IMG/VR virus record: IMGVR_UViG_3300020473_000011
Location: 124,001 to 188,000 of that record
Strand: one strand, 5' to 3'
DNA length: 64,000 bases
From: a virus
Shown: positions 4,206-36,713 of the stretch, in pieces
Numbering within the stretch: position 1 is the stretch's first letter
Layout: every line of letters starts with the position of its first letter
Position numbers and translations under genes: made by a program
The notes under the pieces: model-generated
What the model was told of the DNA's origin: nothing
Database searches by the model: none
Seen by the model: only the letters and a program-made list of their open reading frames with translations

Positions 4206-4240
4206 GTTATCAGTGTCTCTTTTACTACTATTCAATAAAA

Positions 4241-4256
4241 ATCATTGTACAATGAT
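4241..4256. promoter_or_regulatory. Perfect 16-bp palindromic TTGTACAA box between divergent genes
   Basis: ATCATTGTACAATGAT is a complete palindrome in the 332-bp gap between divergent genes. On the plus strand TTGTAC is followed 11 bp later by TATAGT. On the minus strand it is followed 16 bp later by TAGTAG. It may drive or repress both directions. Confidence 0.55.
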
Positions 4257-13943: not shown

Positions 13944-14318
13944 ATGAAGAAATTACTTTTAGCAGCTGCCTGCACCATTGGCCTTACGGGCTGCTTCTCT
14001 GATAAACCGAAGGTTGTCTACGTGGATAGCCAAACAGGCAAGACCCTGAGCGAGGCTGACATACAGCTACGTCCACGCATTGTATCTAACCGAGACTACA
14101 GCGTCGTGTGCTTGAACAACGTACTCTACTACCGCTATCAATACTTTAGACAGGCATCGCTTGCCCCTGTAATGGTACCTCTTGAAGGTGGCGCTGCTAA
14201 GGTGAAGCCCGAACACCTGCTCAAGAAATTAGAGACACCCGACCCATTCAACAAAGATGTCCCTGCCGAGCTGCCTGCTGACAGTGTCTATACACAGCTT
14301 GTGGGAGTGACGTGCTAA
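13944..14318 (+). CDS. Lipoprotein, 124 aa (paralog of 19572 gene)
   Basis: Signal peptide MKKLLLAAACTIGLTGC with lipobox LTGC, so it should be lipid-anchored in the envelope. The mature part starts with VVYVDSQTGKTL and ends GVTC. The same layout, with YVDVSTGKPVL near the start, a central cysteine before VYI/LYY, and a terminal GVTC, is seen in the lipoprotein at 19572. A disulfide between the two conserved cysteines is plausible. Phage lipoproteins often block superinfection, which is only a suggestion here. Confidence 0.8.
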   Translation: MKKLLLAAACTIGLTGCFSDKPKVVYVDSQTGKTLSEADIQLRPRIVSNRDYSVVCLNNVLYYRYQYFRQASLAPVMVPLEGGAAKVKPEHLLKKLETPDPFNKDVPAELPADSVYTQLVGVTC

Positions 14319-14872
14319 TGATCTCAATCGTCAACGTATCGGATGAGTCCGCCCCGCTGGTGGGGGATAACCAGTACGAGCTGCGTATTAACAACAGAGT
14401 CATGACGACGTTTCAGCATGAGCGTAGCGTTGATGGCCTGTCACGCTGTTTACGTGATGCAGCTGACGCGATGGACGCTAAACTCGCGAAAGACGCTCAG
14501 CGCTTCAATGAGGACACGCTAAGGCAGCTGGCCGCTATTCTAAGTGACGGCGTCGCTGATAGCCCCTCTCAGGCACAAATCAAGAAAGCCAAGAGAAAAG
14601 CTGACAGGCCACCAGCGTCACCCAGTGAGGTGCTGTTCAAATTCTTTGCTGATCAAGGACTCACAATTGAGCAGGCAGCCGAGCGTATGGGTGTCTCAGT
14701 CATGATCCTTTACCGCCTAAAGTCATCGAACTCAATGTCGGTAAAGCTGGCGGTGATGCTTGAAGAGCATTTCAACATTAAGGCAAGTCAGCTGTTTTAC
14801 ATTGAAGAGCAGTACAAGCGCCATAAGCTGCAACGTGCCTTAGAGCGTGCCAAGCAGAGGGAAGAACTCTGA
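14318..14872 (+). CDS. HigA-like HTH regulator with extra N-terminal domain
   Basis: 184 aa. The C-terminal half holds a HigA-type domain: SEVLFKFFADQGLTIEQAAE, HTH MGVSVMILYRLKSS, then VKLAVMLEEHFNIKASQLFY. The N-terminal 90 residues form an unrelated small domain followed by a basic linker (KKAKRKADR). The ATG overlaps the stop of the lipoprotein gene (TAATG); a GTG 6 bp upstream is possible. The next gene encodes a second HigA-like protein, with no toxin-like gene beside either. Confidence 0.75.
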   Translation: MISIVNVSDESAPLVGDNQYELRINNRVMTTFQHERSVDGLSRCLRDAADAMDAKLAKDAQRFNEDTLRQLAAILSDGVADSPSQAQIKKAKRKADRPPASPSEVLFKFFADQGLTIEQAAERMGVSVMILYRLKSSNSMSVKLAVMLEEHFNIKASQLFYIEEQYKRHKLQRALERAKQREEL

Positions 14873-15192
14873 TGGGTGTTGTTGAGGATATGCGTAGCAT
14901 GATAGAGCTTACCGATGAACCTGCATGTGAAGACCTACAAACGTCACTGGGTGCAGGTGTATTCCTAAAGAAGTACCTTGAGTCATTAGGGTCTAACCCA
15001 ACGCAGGCTGCTGCCGTATTAGGCGTGAATAGCTCCACGACTAAGCGCCTGTGTGACGGCGGTGCCCTGACTATCGAAATGGCGGCCAAGCTGCATAAGT
15101 ATTATAACCTGTGTTCGTACGACTTGTTCGAACTGGAAGCGTCACGCAAGGCCACCAAGGCACGACAACTAATTGAACAAGGCTTAGTGTAA
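14872..15192 (+). CDS. HigA-like HTH regulator, 106 aa
   Basis: Compact XRE protein: GVFLKKYLESLGSNPTQAAA, recognition region GVNSSTTKRLCDGG, and EMAAKLHKYYNLCSYDLFEL. Starts on a TGATG overlap with the previous HigA-like gene. It could act with that protein on the operon promoter. Residue similarity between the pair suggests an old tandem duplication. Confidence 0.75.
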   Translation: MGVVEDMRSMIELTDEPACEDLQTSLGAGVFLKKYLESLGSNPTQAAAVLGVNSSTTKRLCDGGALTIEMAAKLHKYYNLCSYDLFELEASRKATKARQLIEQGLV

Positions 15193-15218: not shown

Positions 15219-15446
15219 ATGACAAACAAGAGTAAAATAGCCCTAGGCATCCTATGCGTTGTCCTAGTTATCGGTGGTGTGAGCGCAGCAAGCCGTTATA
15301 TGTCGCGCTGGACATCAACGTTTAGTATTCAGCACAAGATTATTCAACCCAAGGCAGGCAAAGAGTGTGTTGTTGTCTCAACCACCAGCGCTGTTGCGAC
15401 AGACTGCTGGGATGTACCTGCGGCTAAGGTAGGAGGTCGTCACTGA
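15219..15446 (+). CDS. Single-pass membrane protein, 75 aa
   Basis: N-terminal helix (IALGILCVVLVIGGVSAA) after a short positive tail, so a bitopic or secreted protein; the outer part has two cysteines (KECVV and TDCWD). GGGAAAGAGAC precedes the ATG. Its stop overlaps the ATG of the Thg1-like gene (TGATG), so the two are translationally coupled. Function unknown. Confidence 0.65.
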   Translation: MTNKSKIALGILCVVLVIGGVSAASRYMSRWTSTFSIQHKIIQPKAGKECVVVSTTSAVATDCWDVPAAKVGGRH

Positions 15447-16321
15447 TGGACACGAATGAGTTAGCAACCCGAATGAAGATGTACGAGCTGTCTACGCCTC
15501 ATCGGATCCCGAGCCTGATGCCGATTGTCGTCCGTTTGGATGGGCGTAGCTTTTCGACGTTTACGAAAGACATGAACCGTCCCTTTGATACACAGTTCCA
15601 TGAGGCGATGTGTGCTCTCACAGCCTTCTTAGTGGAGCGGACTAACGCAACCATTGGCTACACCCAGTCTGACGAAATCAGCCTTGTCTTTTTGAACACG
15701 AACTATAAGTCAGATCACCTCTTCGGTGGGCGTAAGCAGAAGATTGAGTCATTACTCGCTGGTATGGCCTCAGCCTTCTTCATGACACAAGTTCAGCAAT
15801 ACTGGCCAGATAAGCTGGTGGACTTCCCCCACTTTGATGCGCGTGCGGTTGCCTTCCCCAATGAAGTAGAAGCCTATAACTGTATTGTATGGCGCGAACA
15901 GGATGCAACTAAGAACAGCGTTCAGTTACTGGGTCAGTCCTACTATAAGCACAGCCGCTTGGTGTTGCTGTCTAACAAAGCGATTCAACACGCGCTCTTT
16001 ACTGAGCACAACGTTAATTGGAACGACCTAGAACCATGGCAAAAGCGCGGTACCTACTTTCAGCAACGTAAGGTAGACGGCGTTCGCTGTGCTGTGGCTC
16101 TCGATATGCCACCCATCACGCGTTGCAGTAATGCCATGGGTGTCTTGCTCCGAGGTGAGCAGCCTGCTGAGTTATTCATGAGCTGGCCAAAACCCCTTGA
16201 TACGAATGAGGCTCGTATGGAAGACGGTACGTTAGCTAGTCTTGAGAAGAGAAAGCAGCAAGTTCTTGCGTCTATGGGCGTGCCATCAGACATTATCGGT
16301 GCGAACGGAGGGTATAAGTAA
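15446..16321 (+). CDS. Thg1-like tRNA 3'-5' polymerase (tRNAHis guanylyltransferase family)
   Basis: Family member that adds nucleotides to tRNA 5' ends in the reverse (3'-5') direction. Visible catalytic features: VVRLDGRSFSTF with metal-binding Asp32, YTQSDEISLVF with Asp76/Glu77, FDARAVAFP (130-138) and WQKRGTYF. The HINNLYN motif of eukaryotic Thg1 is replaced by DATKNSVQ, as in the Thg1-like (TLP) group that repairs truncated tRNAs. Length 291 aa is normal. It overlaps both neighbours by one base. Bacterial tRNAHis already encodes G-1, so repair of damaged tRNAs is the more likely role. Confidence 0.92.
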   Translation: MDTNELATRMKMYELSTPHRIPSLMPIVVRLDGRSFSTFTKDMNRPFDTQFHEAMCALTAFLVERTNATIGYTQSDEISLVFLNTNYKSDHLFGGRKQKIESLLAGMASAFFMTQVQQYWPDKLVDFPHFDARAVAFPNEVEAYNCIVWREQDATKNSVQLLGQSYYKHSRLVLLSNKAIQHALFTEHNVNWNDLEPWQKRGTYFQQRKVDGVRCAVALDMPPITRCSNAMGVLLRGEQPAELFMSWPKPLDTNEARMEDGTLASLEKRKQQVLASMGVPSDIIGANGGYK

Positions 16322-17130
16322 TGTACAGCGCCCCTTATATCCCGTTACAGGTGACTATCGCTAGTGTGGCTGACCATTGGACGTTCCCAGTCTTACTAAA
16401 GATGTCACGTGATGTTGATCCCGCGCACAAACACAACGAGCGTGTCTGGGCAGTGTTCCCGACCTTCGAGAAAGCGATACCGTATGCCTCGGTTATTAAC
16501 GGTATTGCACTGCCACGCTACGACGCCGCAGGTAAGGAACTGGATTTAACTGACATGCTGGCACTGGCGCGTGACCACCTTGTCCACCAGCTGTCGCGTT
16601 TCTTGCTAACGGGTGCTGGCCATTTACAAGAACTGGTACCGCATACGCACGCGGACTACGCCGAGCAGTACCCTGCACTCTACCAAGGGTCGGATAACGT
16701 ATCGTTATACAAAGAGCGTATTACGTTACGCCCTGACGAGTTGGATTACACGTACTACGAACAGGGGAGCTTTGATTTTGAAAAGTTCGACGTCGTGAAC
16801 CTGTTAGCTAAAGAGCTGCTAGATGACGTAACCGTGTCGGCCTTCTGGCACGTGGATTTCACACCGAACCGTCTTGTCATGCGACGCGAGCACCTGACAG
16901 TGAGTCTGATTGGTCACACAGTGAGTGTTGAGGTCGGGTTACCTCATACGCAAAAGTGCGCGTTAGACTTCGATTTGTGGGAGACTGTACGTTTATACAG
17001 TATACTGCGCCGTAGGCACTTTCGTGAGAACGCGCGTTATGAAAAACGGTCTGCAAAGTACACAGGCCGCAGTACGTTCTATGCCCTGCGCCTACTTAAA
17101 TCAACACATAGGAACCCTAATGAACTTTGA
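16321..17130 (+). CDS. Hypothetical protein, 269 aa, coupled to Thg1-like gene
   Basis: Unrecognised. The ATG overlaps the TAA of the Thg1-like gene (TAATG), so the products are made together and may act together. The protein has mixed alpha/beta regions (HVDFTPNRLVMRREHLTVSL) and a very basic C-terminus (RRRHFRENARYEKRSAKY) that could bind nucleic acid. No signal peptide or membrane helix. Confidence 0.72.
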   Translation: MYSAPYIPLQVTIASVADHWTFPVLLKMSRDVDPAHKHNERVWAVFPTFEKAIPYASVINGIALPRYDAAGKELDLTDMLALARDHLVHQLSRFLLTGAGHLQELVPHTHADYAEQYPALYQGSDNVSLYKERITLRPDELDYTYYEQGSFDFEKFDVVNLLAKELLDDVTVSAFWHVDFTPNRLVMRREHLTVSLIGHTVSVEVGLPHTQKCALDFDLWETVRLYSILRRRHFRENARYEKRSAKYTGRSTFYALRLLKSTHRNPNEL

Positions 17131-17332
17131 GCTGGCTCTTAAAGTTGAGCTGTACTTTGTTATCGGTGCGGTGCTGTATCTCATGTACACGCGCATCGAG
17201 CAGTACTTTCCGACAATGGCCGATGTTAACAAGCGGCTGACGTACGCCCTGCTCTTTTTCTTCTGGCCACTTATGGTCGTGGTACTGGCAGAGGAATATG
17301 TCAAAGGTAAACGCAACGGGGAAGACCAATGA
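17120..17332 (+). CDS. Two-helix membrane protein, 70 aa
   Basis: Helix 1 (VELYFVIGAVLYLMY), a short loop, and helix 2 (YALLFFFWPLMVVVLAEEY) with a basic tail. The chosen ATG follows GGAACCCTA and lies inside the end of the previous gene. A longer reading from 17024 lies wholly within that gene and is rejected. The FFFWPLMVV segment resembles VCFWPALLVA in the next gene, so the two may be diverged duplicates or form one complex. Confidence 0.65.
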   Translation: MNFELALKVELYFVIGAVLYLMYTRIEQYFPTMADVNKRLTYALLFFFWPLMVVVLAEEYVKGKRNGEDQ

Positions 17333-17679
17333 CGCTATACCAAGTATTGAGTAGTGACATGCTGATGAATGTCTTGATGGGTGTTGAGTTCTATGTGGCG
17401 CTGGCGTCATTGGTAAGTTTGTTCGTTAAGCACGAGGACTACCGACTCTACCCCATCCCTATGTGGACGACGACCCGCTATGCGACAGTACTGGTTTGCT
17501 TTTGGCCTGCTTTGCTGGTGGCACTACCGTTCCTTCGCTACAAGAATCGTAACCGAACGGCAGAGTCGGTTCGCAATGAGATCAAGAAACGGAACCTTGC
17601 TCGGAACGCTGCTATGTTCCGTCACCATGGGATGGACTTCACAGCTGACCTGCTTGAAGGCAAGCACAAGAACCTTTAG
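17329..17679 (+). CDS. Membrane protein, 116 aa
   Basis: ATGA overlap with the preceding membrane gene. Two hydrophobic helices (LMGVEFYVALASLVSLFV and TVLVCFWPALLVALPFL) are followed by a basic cytoplasmic tail (RYKNRNRTAESVRNEIKKRN). Function unknown; pairing with the 70-residue protein is suggested by shared FWP motif and coupling. Confidence 0.68.
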   Translation: MTLYQVLSSDMLMNVLMGVEFYVALASLVSLFVKHEDYRLYPIPMWTTTRYATVLVCFWPALLVALPFLRYKNRNRTAESVRNEIKKRNLARNAAMFRHHGMDFTADLLEGKHKNL

Positions 17680-17682
17680 TTA

Positions 17683-17730
17683 GACACTGAGACACTGAGA
17701 CACTGAGACACTGAGACACTGAGACAATGA
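17683..17730 (+). repeat. Tandem 8-bp repeat (GACACTGA)5 in a ribosome-binding leader
   Basis: Five perfect GACACTGA units from 17683 to 17722 and a sixth degenerate unit (GACAATGA) that contains the start codon of the 255-residue gene. Each unit carries the TGAGAC leader found before many genes of this element, so repeat number could change translation of that gene. Confidence 0.9.
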
Positions 17731-20235: not shown

Positions 20236-20688
20236 ATGTTAAAGCCATTAAAGGGCGACTTACTACAGTTTGCTGAGCATGGTTACTTTGATGTGGTCGT
20301 CCATGGGTGTAATTGCTTCTGTGAAATGGGCGCTGGGTTTGCCTATGCAGTAAAGACCCAGTACCCGAAAGCCCATCGGGCAGATAGGCAAACACTCAGG
20401 GGTGATCGTAACAAGCTTGGAACCTATACCAGTGCCAATGTCGGTCACTTTATTATCGTAAATGCGTATACCCAGTATCATTTTGAGGGAGAAGGCCAGC
20501 GTTTTGACTATGATGCTCTTAGAGACGTCATGAAACGCATCAAACAGGACTTTTCTGGTAAACGCATAGGTTACCCTCAAATTGGGGCTGGTTTCGCTGG
20601 TGGATGCTGGCGAGAGGCTTCAAAGATAATAAATAGGGAACTGAGAGGCGAAAAACACGGTGTAGTGGTCTTTCAGCGGCACAGATAG
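20236..20688 (+). CDS. Macro-domain protein (ADP-ribose binding/hydrolysis)
   Basis: 150 aa, essentially one macro domain. KGDLL (residues 5-9), VVVHGCNCFCEMGAGFAYAV (ADP-ribose loop 1, with the usual N-x-x-N-x-x-x-x-G-x-G pattern altered to GCNCFCEMGAG), and the phosphate loop IGYPQIGAGFAGGCW near residues 111-125. Such domains remove or bind ADP-ribose or ADP-ribose-1''-phosphate. A phage copy could reverse ADP-ribosylation made by host defences or process NAD-derived products. Placed directly after the small Cys-rich gene. Confidence 0.85.
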   Translation: MLKPLKGDLLQFAEHGYFDVVVHGCNCFCEMGAGFAYAVKTQYPKAHRADRQTLRGDRNKLGTYTSANVGHFIIVNAYTQYHFEGEGQRFDYDALRDVMKRIKQDFSGKRIGYPQIGAGFAGGCWREASKIINRELRGEKHGVVVFQRHR

Positions 20689-20738: not shown

Positions 20739-20802
20739 CCTGTGTTGCAGCCCTTTTAGTCTAAATTTAATCGTTGTACAATGATTTTTAGTGCGCTATA
20801 GT
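20739..20802 (+). promoter_or_regulatory. Composite promoter (CCTG..GCAG, TTGTAC, TATAGT)
   Basis: CCTGTGTTGCAG (20739-20750) lies 35 bp upstream of TTGTAC (20774-20779), which is exactly 17 bp from TATAGT (20797-20802). Drives the 214-residue gene. Confidence 0.7.
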
Positions 20803-20848
20803 GCCAAAACGAATCAAACATTCATTATTAACCAAGGGATAGATCACC

Positions 20849-21737: not shown

Positions 21738-21803
21738 CACTGGCCTGCTCTACTGCGTGCGTCGTTAATCACTACGGCGCAGCACTTTTCTTTAAAATAA
21801 TCG

Positions 21804-21832
21804 TTGTACAATGATTGTGTTTCAGCTATAGT
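21804..21832 (+). promoter_or_regulatory. TTGTAC-17-TATAGT promoter
   Basis: TTGTAC (21804-21809) and TATAGT (21827-21832) at 17 bp, inside ATCGTTGTACAATGAT. A CGGCGCAG sequence lies about 30 bp upstream. Confidence 0.7.
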
Positions 21833-21870
21833 GACCCTAAATCACTAATAATTACCGTAGGAACACTACC

Positions 21871-22162: not shown

Positions 22163-22260
22163 CCTGTCCCGCAGTTATTTATATCGAATAAAATCGTTGT
22201 ACAATGATTTATAAGCTGGTATAGTGGTCTCAAGTTAAGAATTGAACTACAGAGACCACT
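22163..22260 (+). promoter_or_regulatory. Composite promoter and hairpin leader
   Basis: CCTGTCCCGCAG (22163-22174), TTGTAC (22197-22202) and TATAGT (22220-22225, 17-bp spacer). The transcript leader has a 9-bp inverted repeat AGTGGTCTC (22223-22231) / GAGACCACT (22252-22260), which would bury the GAGAC leader just before the ATG. Confidence 0.65.
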
Positions 22261-29287: not shown

Positions 29288-29316
29288 ACTATAGCAGCTT
29301 GATAATCGTTGTACAA
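29288..29316 (-). promoter_or_regulatory. TTGTAC-17-TATAGT promoter, minus strand
   Basis: Minus strand TTGTAC (29316-29311) and TATAGT (29293-29288), 17 bp apart, with CCTGCCCCACAG 35 bp upstream (29351-29340). Fixes the start of the 127-residue gene. Confidence 0.7.
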
Positions 29317-35834: not shown

Positions 35835-36713
35835 ATGACACACGCAATGAACCCCGAAAATTTGGGGTTGTTAAAGAAGACCCTCGATTCGCTGCCCGAT
35901 GGCGTGCTGGTCGTTTCTCCTGACCGAAAAATTGTTTATGCGAATGACCGATTTATCGCTATGTGGGGGATCCCAAGCACCGTCATGGGGACTCATGACG
36001 ACAGCAAGATACTTGATTATGTTGAGGCGCAGGTCACTGACCTTGAGACTTTCCGAAAGCAGGTAGAGGATTTATACGAGACACGCCGCGAAACAGAAGA
36101 TGAGATCCATCTTACTGATGGCCGTGTTTTTCTCCGCCGAGGGACGTACCACGTTAATGCTGAGGGTGAGACCGCCCACATTTGGGTGTTCTCCGATATA
36201 ACCAGCCTAAAAGCATTTGAGCGCTGTTCGCTTACTGGCGTATTTAACCGCCGTAAGTTCGATGAAGAGTTCGGCTTGCGCCTGCTTGGCATGACAGACA
36301 AGGATATTATTGGCGTAGCGCTACTAGACCTTGATAACTTCAAGCAGTACAACGACAGCTATGGCCACCAGCAAGGCGACCGCTTACTTTCAGAGGTTGG
36401 ACGCTTGTTCCTTGGACGCCTACGTCGTAGAGGCGACACAGCTTATCGTATTGGGGGAGAAGAGTTCCTACTAGTCTGTAAGTGCCGCACTGAGCAACAC
36501 CTGTTTGATTTCATTGATTCAATACGCGCTGATGTTCAGCGCCTTGGCCGTGAGCATGAGAAGAACGCACCTTATAATGTCGTGACCTTTTCGGCAGGCG
36601 TTGGTTTCATACAGGGCAGCGCGAAGGCTGACTACGTGTTTGCCCAAGTAGATAAGGCGCTCTACGCGGCAAAAGAAAAAGGCCGCAACCAACTCGTAAG
36701 GGCTAAGATTTAG
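35835..36713 (+). CDS. PAS-GGDEF diguanylate cyclase
   Basis: Makes the second messenger cyclic di-GMP from two GTP. Residues about 10-125 form a PAS sensor domain (DSLPDGVLVVSPDRKIVYAN, ending VFSDITSLKAFE). Residues 130-292 form a GGDEF domain with LTGVFNRRKFDEE, LDLDNFKQYNDSYGH (Asp165/Asp167) and the active-site GGEEF at 207-211. RxxD inhibitory site R198-D201 sits five residues before it, so feedback control is expected. No membrane segment. AAGGTAGACCGAT precedes the ATG and a terminator follows. A complete, apparently active cyclase on a phage-type genome is unusual. Confidence 0.95.
   Translation: MTHAMNPENLGLLKKTLDSLPDGVLVVSPDRKIVYANDRFIAMWGIPSTVMGTHDDSKILDYVEAQVTDLETFRKQVEDLYETRRETEDEIHLTDGRVFLRRGTYHVNAEGETAHIWVFSDITSLKAFERCSLTGVFNRRKFDEEFGLRLLGMTDKDIIGVALLDLDNFKQYNDSYGHQQGDRLLSEVGRLFLGRLRRRGDTAYRIGGEEFLLVCKCRTEQHLFDFIDSIRADVQRLGREHEKNAPYNVVTFSAGVGFIQGSAKADYVFAQVDKALYAAKEKGRNQLVRAKI

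What the first reader, a model, noticed from the sequence alone, without database searches (positions are those of the whole stretch)
15219..17679. Thg1-like 3'-5' polymerase embedded in a coupled membrane-protein operon
The catalytic residues are kept, and the gene is locked by one-base overlaps between a single-pass membrane protein and an unknown basic protein, followed by two membrane proteins with a shared FWP motif. Repairing tRNA 5' ends could counter tRNA-cleaving defences. The fixed neighbours hint at an undescribed multi-part system.
Basis: partly seen in the sequence, partly recalled or inferred. Interest (0 to 1): 0.66.

Follow-up and report, generated by a model that had tools for sequence, protein, structure and literature searches.

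The report
Ordinary jumbo-phage tRNA 5'-end repair enzyme
A large bacterial virus carries a well-kept copy of a known enzyme that adds missing bases to the front end of tRNAs, and the neighbouring small genes that looked like fixed partners occur beside no other copy of the enzyme that was examined, so this is a new member of a known kind rather than a new system.

Summary
The gene is real. ORF 15446-16321 is a Thg1-like protein (TLP) of a 281.6-kb IMG/VR jumbo-phage record (Pfam Thg1 1e-31; phrog_4717 4e-73; nearest solved relative is the Bacillus thuringiensis repair TLP 4kgk/4kgm by sequence and fold). All metal-binding residues, and every activation and transfer residue checked, are kept. 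The one-base TGATG/TAATG overlaps, the single-pass upstream protein and the two FWP membrane proteins are also there. The "basic" neighbour is not basic (pI 6.5).

The proposed novelty fails. Relatives of the enzyme occur in at least 126 phage records, and Thg1 in jumbo phages was published as an RNA-repair function in 2021. None of the neighbours has a recognisable homologue at any of 90 other TLP loci, although homology weaker than tblastn detects cannot be excluded. Stop/start overlaps are routine in this genome.

Best reading: template-directed 5'-end repair of tRNAs, complementary to a CCA-addition/repair enzyme and 14 tRNA genes in the same record. Biochemical proof is absent. Anticodon-loop healing is less likely: the RNA_ligase, RlaP and AAA_33 kinase models found nothing in the record.

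In passing: about 29 copies of an 18-bp palindromic promoter/operator-like element are scattered over the genome.

The parts
15219..15446 (+). P5: 75-aa basic single-pass membrane protein of unknown function; TGATG overlap with the TLP gene
   Evidence: one KD segment 2.46 at residue 7, pI 9.7; no Pfam, PHROG or PADLOC match; no homologue at 90 TLP loci
15446..16321 (+). Thg1-like protein (TLP), 3'-5' nucleotidyltransferase/polymerase, 291 aa, catalytic residues intact, with a poorly ordered C-terminal tail (about residues 240-291)
   Evidence: Pfam Thg1 1.2e-31, phrog_4717 4e-73, PDB 4kgk 1e-40, AlphaFold pLDDT 88.2 and Foldseek 4kgm 2.6e-22, residues
16321..17130 (+). P7: 269-aa soluble orphan protein, pI 6.5, function unknown; TAATG overlap with the TLP gene
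   Evidence: no family match, no relative in phages, viral contigs or genome contigs; single-sequence model uninformative, pLDDT 33.8
17120..17332 (+). P8: 70-aa small membrane protein with two hydrophobic segments and an FWP motif
   Evidence: KD peaks; weak PHROG 7899/6756 of unknown function, E about 1e-3; no phage tblastn match
17329..17679 (+). P9: 116-aa membrane protein with two hydrophobic segments and an FWP motif; possibly a diverged paralogue of P8
   Evidence: P8-P9 local score 45; 0.25% of full shuffles and 3.1% of local shuffles reach it; no relatives

Best explanation
The 15446-16321 gene encodes a standard phage TLP. The protein (probably a tetramer, like BtTLP) would bind tRNAs whose 5' end has been shortened or mis-processed, activate the 5' phosphate with ATP or GTP, and add nucleotides 3' to 5' using the 3' side of the acceptor stem as template. 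With the phage-encoded CCA addition/repair enzyme at the 3' end, it would keep both ends of the acceptor stem of host and phage tRNAs whole during a long infection. The flanking small genes are lineage-specific jumbo-phage ORFs in the same densely packed rightward gene run and have no demonstrated link to it. Shown here: family, fold, active-site conservation, co-presence of a CCA enzyme and 14 tRNAs, lack of conserved neighbours. Inferred: activity, substrate, role in infection.
For: Family and fold. Active-site residues invariant in 34 phage TLPs, equivalent to those tested in Thg1/BtTLP. BtTLP, the closest solved relative, repairs 5'-truncated tRNAs in vitro on a broad tRNA range. The record has 14 tRNAs and none is tRNA-His, so a G-1 addition role on a phage tRNA-His is not indicated. 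The record has a CCA-adding/repair enzyme, NF008137 equivalog 551.9 bits against a cut-off of 451; 18 of 32 other TLP-bearing phage records also have a PF01743 gene (no base rate was measured for phages without TLP). In other phages the TLP gene lies near RNA-repair genes: RlaP within about 8 kb at 14 of 90 loci, T4-type RNA ligase at 4 of 90, and CCA enzyme, RlaP, RNA ligase and PNKP together around the TLP of Vibrio phage D69. All 14 phage tRNAs encode CCA and have no mismatch in the first three acceptor pairs, only wobble G:U, so programmed editing is not needed and repair is the simpler role.
Against: No activity measured. Physiological substrates of prokaryotic TLPs are unknown in the literature (PMC4284800). 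The 18/32 co-occurrence lacks a control and is biased by large genomes and near-duplicate phages; the RlaP count is dominated by one related phage group. tRNA-Leu(tag) and tRNA-Glu(ttc) carry G1:U72, a pair edited in Dictyostelium mitochondria, so an editing role is not fully excluded.
Confidence: 0.8

Rival explanations
1. Counter-defence: the TLP specifically restores tRNAs damaged by host tRNases activated by phage infection.
For: Proposed for jumbo phages as a group, with Thg1 listed among RNA-repair enzymes (PMC7824862). The phage also carries replacement tRNAs and a macrodomain related to DarG (2.8e-10).
Against: Anticodon nucleases cut in the anticodon loop, and such breaks need end healing and ligation; no PF09414 ligase, RlaP or AAA_33 kinase was found in this record (PF09511, RtcB and other models were not run and the record may be incomplete). 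A TLP would help only where nucleotides are lost from the 5' acceptor strand.
Confidence: 0.15
2. Multi-part system: TLP, P5, P7, P8 and P9 form a membrane-associated complex or undescribed module.
For: Tight stop/start junctions at 15446 and 16321 and co-directionality; two possibly paralogous membrane proteins.
Against: 0 of 90 TLP loci in other phages keep any of these genes. Overlaps are routine in this genome and the co-directional run extends from about 13.5 to 23.8 kb, well beyond the five genes. No close relative of this phage was found, so conservation within its own lineage could not be tested.
Confidence: 0.04
3. G-1 addition to tRNA-His (the annotated 'tRNA-His guanylyltransferase' activity).
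For: Family name in Pfam/PHROG annotations.
Against: Closest to BtTLP rather than eukaryotic Thg1 (143 versus 55 bits); no tRNA-His gene in the record; TLPs generally do not catalyse the non-templated G-1 addition and act on many tRNAs.
Confidence: 0.03

Closest known systems
Bacillus thuringiensis Thg1-like protein (BtTLP; PDB 4kgk/4kgm; PMC3701042)
   Same: Sequence (1e-40 over residues 6-204), predicted fold (Foldseek 2.6e-22), metal carboxylates and the activation/transfer residues checked
   Different: About 35% identity; about 45 residues longer, with a poorly predicted C-terminal tail; phage-encoded; activity not measured
phrog_4717, phage 'tRNA-His guanylyltransferase' (e.g. Pectobacterium phage CBB, Cronobacter GAP32, Pseudomonas phage 201phi2-1)
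   Same: Same family (4e-73), 39-45% identity to these; 126 phage records have relatives
   Different: None of the window's neighbour genes was found at any other locus examined
Jumbo-phage RNA-repair repertoire (Iyer and colleagues 2021, PMC7824862, section 3.4.9)
   Same: Thg1, CCA-adding enzyme, tRNA genes and macrodomain are all listed there
   Different: No RNA ligase, RlaP or kinase found here with the models tried

Membership tests
Thg1-like proteins (TLP) | Thg1 catalytic domain above the curated cut-off | tested here: met
   109.8 bits against 29.2, residues 8-138
Thg1-like proteins (TLP) | three active-site carboxylates (BtTLP D30, D75, E76) and activation/transfer residues | tested here: met
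   D32, D76, E77, R30, S75, K99, R133 identical in 34 of 34; K41 is K or R in 32 of 34 (PMC3701042)
Thg1-like proteins (TLP) | Thg1/TLP fold | tested here: met
   model pLDDT 88.2; the top 32 PDB matches are all Thg1/TLP
Thg1-like proteins (TLP) | template-dependent repair of 5'-truncated tRNAs | not testable with these tools
   needs a biochemical assay
Eukaryotic-type Thg1 (G-1 addition to tRNA-His) | closer sequence relation to eukaryotic Thg1 than to TLPs | tested here: not met
   human THG1 54.7 bits against BtTLP 143.2 bits
   0 of 90 loci at E <= 0.01; tblastn could miss very diverged small proteins
T4-type anticodon-nuclease repair pathway | RNA ligase and polynucleotide kinase encoded by the phage | tested here: inconclusive
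   PF09414, PF10127 and PF13671 absent from the record; PF09511 and RtcB not searched; record completeness unknown

The most novel reading that the evidence does not exclude
In this isolated phage lineage the TLP has been recruited, through coupled translation with P5 and P7-P9, to a membrane-associated tRNA-repair assembly; the absence of the partners elsewhere would then reflect the lack of any sequenced close relative rather than lack of linkage.
Probability: 0.04. Interest if true: 0.5.

Novelty: new member of a known kind. Interest (0 to 1): 0.17.

Why it matters
It adds one more jumbo phage to those that carry both a 5'-end (TLP) and a 3'-end (CCA enzyme) tRNA repair activity together with their own tRNAs. 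No in vivo role of a prokaryotic TLP was known as of the 2014 review PMC4284800, and a phage with a TLP deletion would be a clean place to look for one. As evidence for a new multi-gene system the locus carries little weight.

Tried and rejected
(1) Fixed neighbours: tblastn of P5, P7, P8, P9, P10, HTH1, HTH2 and the upstream lipoprotein against 90 TLP loci, no match at E <= 0.01. (2) P7 homologues: none in viral contigs, genome contigs or phages; single-sequence AlphaFold failed, so no fold search was run on it. (3) P8/P9 homologues: none. (4) Programmed 5' editing of phage tRNAs: no mismatches in pairs 1-3 of the acceptor stem, all CCA encoded. (5) Defence-system families: PADLOC gives no match for the five genes. 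(6) Close relatives of the phage through a structural protein: none in viral contigs, only distant partial matches in phages; megablast of 20 kb gives no match. (7) Terminase_6N to place the phage: no match.

Full report
What was checked. The window is 124001-188000 of a 281,557-base IMG/VR virus record. ORF 15446-16321 is a member of the Thg1/TLP family: Pfam Thg1 109.8 bits, phrog_4717 4e-73. By sequence the best solved relative is the Bacillus thuringiensis TLP 4kgk (1e-40), well ahead of human or yeast Thg1. A model from 34 phage TLPs (pLDDT 88.2) matches only Thg1/TLP structures at E below 1e-3, BtTLP with ATP first. The residues that PMC3701042 lists for metal binding and the active site (D30, D75, E76 of BtTLP), activation and nucleotidyl transfer are kept; R30, D32, S75, D76, E77, K99, R133 and N157 are identical in all 34 proteins. 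So the enzyme is very probably active (inference).

The neighbours. P7 is not basic (pI 6.5); P5, P8 and P9 look like membrane proteins, and P8 and P9 share an FWP-containing second segment and weak similarity (local score 45, reached in 0.25% of full shuffles and 3.1% of local shuffles). P5, P7 and P9 have no convincing Pfam or PHROG match and P8 only a weak one to families of unknown function; PADLOC has none for any of them. No relative of P7, P8 or P9 was found in 50,697 phage records, and pattern scans of viral contigs for P7 and P9 and of genome contigs for P7 also failed.

Are they fixed partners? Ninety TLP loci were collected from annotated phages and IMG/VR. None encodes a recognisable homologue of P5, P7, P8, P9, P10 or the upstream HTH and lipoprotein genes within the flanks held (up to about 8 kb); gene neighbours vary widely between phage groups. 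tblastn with short membrane proteins is insensitive, so very diverged homologues could be missed. Stop/start overlaps are common in this genome (25 places in the window by a frame-based count), as in other jumbo phages (for example a 4-bp overlap before the TLP of CBB and Kaldavass). The co-directional run goes on from about 13.5 to 23.8 kb, so the five genes are not a separate cassette.

How it probably works. The same record holds 14 tRNAs (Cys, Trp, Leu x2, Tyr x2, Phe, Ser x2, Glu, Thr, Met, Ala, Asp; no His) and a CCA addition/repair enzyme above the NCBIfam equivalog cut-off. All 14 tRNAs encode CCA and have paired acceptor ends, so neither enzyme is needed for maturation; repair of lost ends is the natural reading, 5' by TLP and 3' by CCA enzyme. 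In other phages TLP genes lie near RlaP (14 of 90 loci, mostly one related phage group) or T4-type RNA ligase (4 of 90), and in Vibrio phage D69 near CCA enzyme, RlaP, ligase and PNKP together. Of 32 TLP-bearing phage records 18 also have a PF01743 gene, but without a base rate this is only suggestive. The ligase, RlaP and kinase models tried found nothing in the present record, so the classical answer to anticodon nucleases is not evident here, and TLP alone cannot mend an anticodon-loop break. Two tRNAs, Leu(tag) and Glu(ttc), have G1:U72, a pair that is edited in Dictyostelium mitochondria, so a 5'-editing role cannot be wholly excluded.

What is known. Thg1 in jumbo phages, as 5'-end restoration within an RNA-repair repertoire directed against host attacks on translation, was described by Iyer and colleagues in 2021 (PMC7824862). 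At least 126 phage records hold relatives, many annotated as tRNA-His guanylyltransferase. The locus is therefore a new member of a known kind.

Noticed outside the finding. The 18-bp near-palindrome AATCRTTGTACAAYGATT (searched as its 17-base core ATCRTTGTACAAYGATT) occurs at about 29 places with at most one mismatch in the record. Counting up to two mismatches there are 49 forward and 46 reverse matches against 1 and 1 for the reversed control; it is practically absent from 14 other TLP phages (0 to 4 matches each). Of 17 distinct sites examined, 5 have a perfect TATAGT and 2 a five-of-six match at 16-17 bases from the TGTACA core, with a start codon some 50-70 bases on, as expected of a phage promoter with an overlapping operator. 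The remaining sites lack a clear -10 match. This may deserve its own look more than the TLP does.

Noticed in passing
window 20764-20803, 21794-21833, 22187-22226 (+); 29288-29315, 4224-4251 (-); genome-wide (loci L104-L133): Near-palindrome AATCRTTGTACAAYGATT at about 29 places (<=1 mismatch) in the 281-kb record, 49+46 strand matches at <=2 mismatches against 1+1 in the reversed control, rare in 14 other TLP phages. About 7 of 17 examined sites carry TATAGT or a 5/6 match 16-17 bases downstream and lie before start codons: a dispersed promoter/operator set, possibly a phage regulon.
   Followed up: partly
window 20236-20688: Macrodomain protein (Pfam Macro 1e-4, phrog_335 8e-40, PADLOC DarG 2.8e-10), a candidate ADP-ribose-removing counter-defence gene.
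   Followed up: partly
L103 526-1878 (-), record position about 269 kb: Phage-encoded multifunctional CCA addition/repair enzyme, 450 aa, with a weak HD-domain match; the best match in the phage collection is a Salmonella enterica tRNA nucleotidyltransferase at about 50% identity.
   Followed up: yes
window 14312-14872 and 14872-15192: Two adjacent HTH proteins that are paralogues of each other (E 2e-5), the first weakly like HigA/plasmid antitoxins; no toxin partner identified.
   Followed up: no
window 17682-17730: Six tandem copies of AGACACTG directly before the start codon of the next gene (17727); the motif occurs nowhere else in the window.
   Followed up: no
window 35835-36713: 292-aa protein whose C-terminal half matches phrog_5594 (3e-36, unknown function); from memory its start reads like a PAS domain before a histidine kinase, which was not tested.
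   Followed up: no
L020 2233-2777, L021 2757-6769: Two clusters of tRNA genes (6 and 8), all with encoded CCA; Leu(tag) and Glu(ttc) have G1:U72 acceptor pairs.
   Followed up: partly
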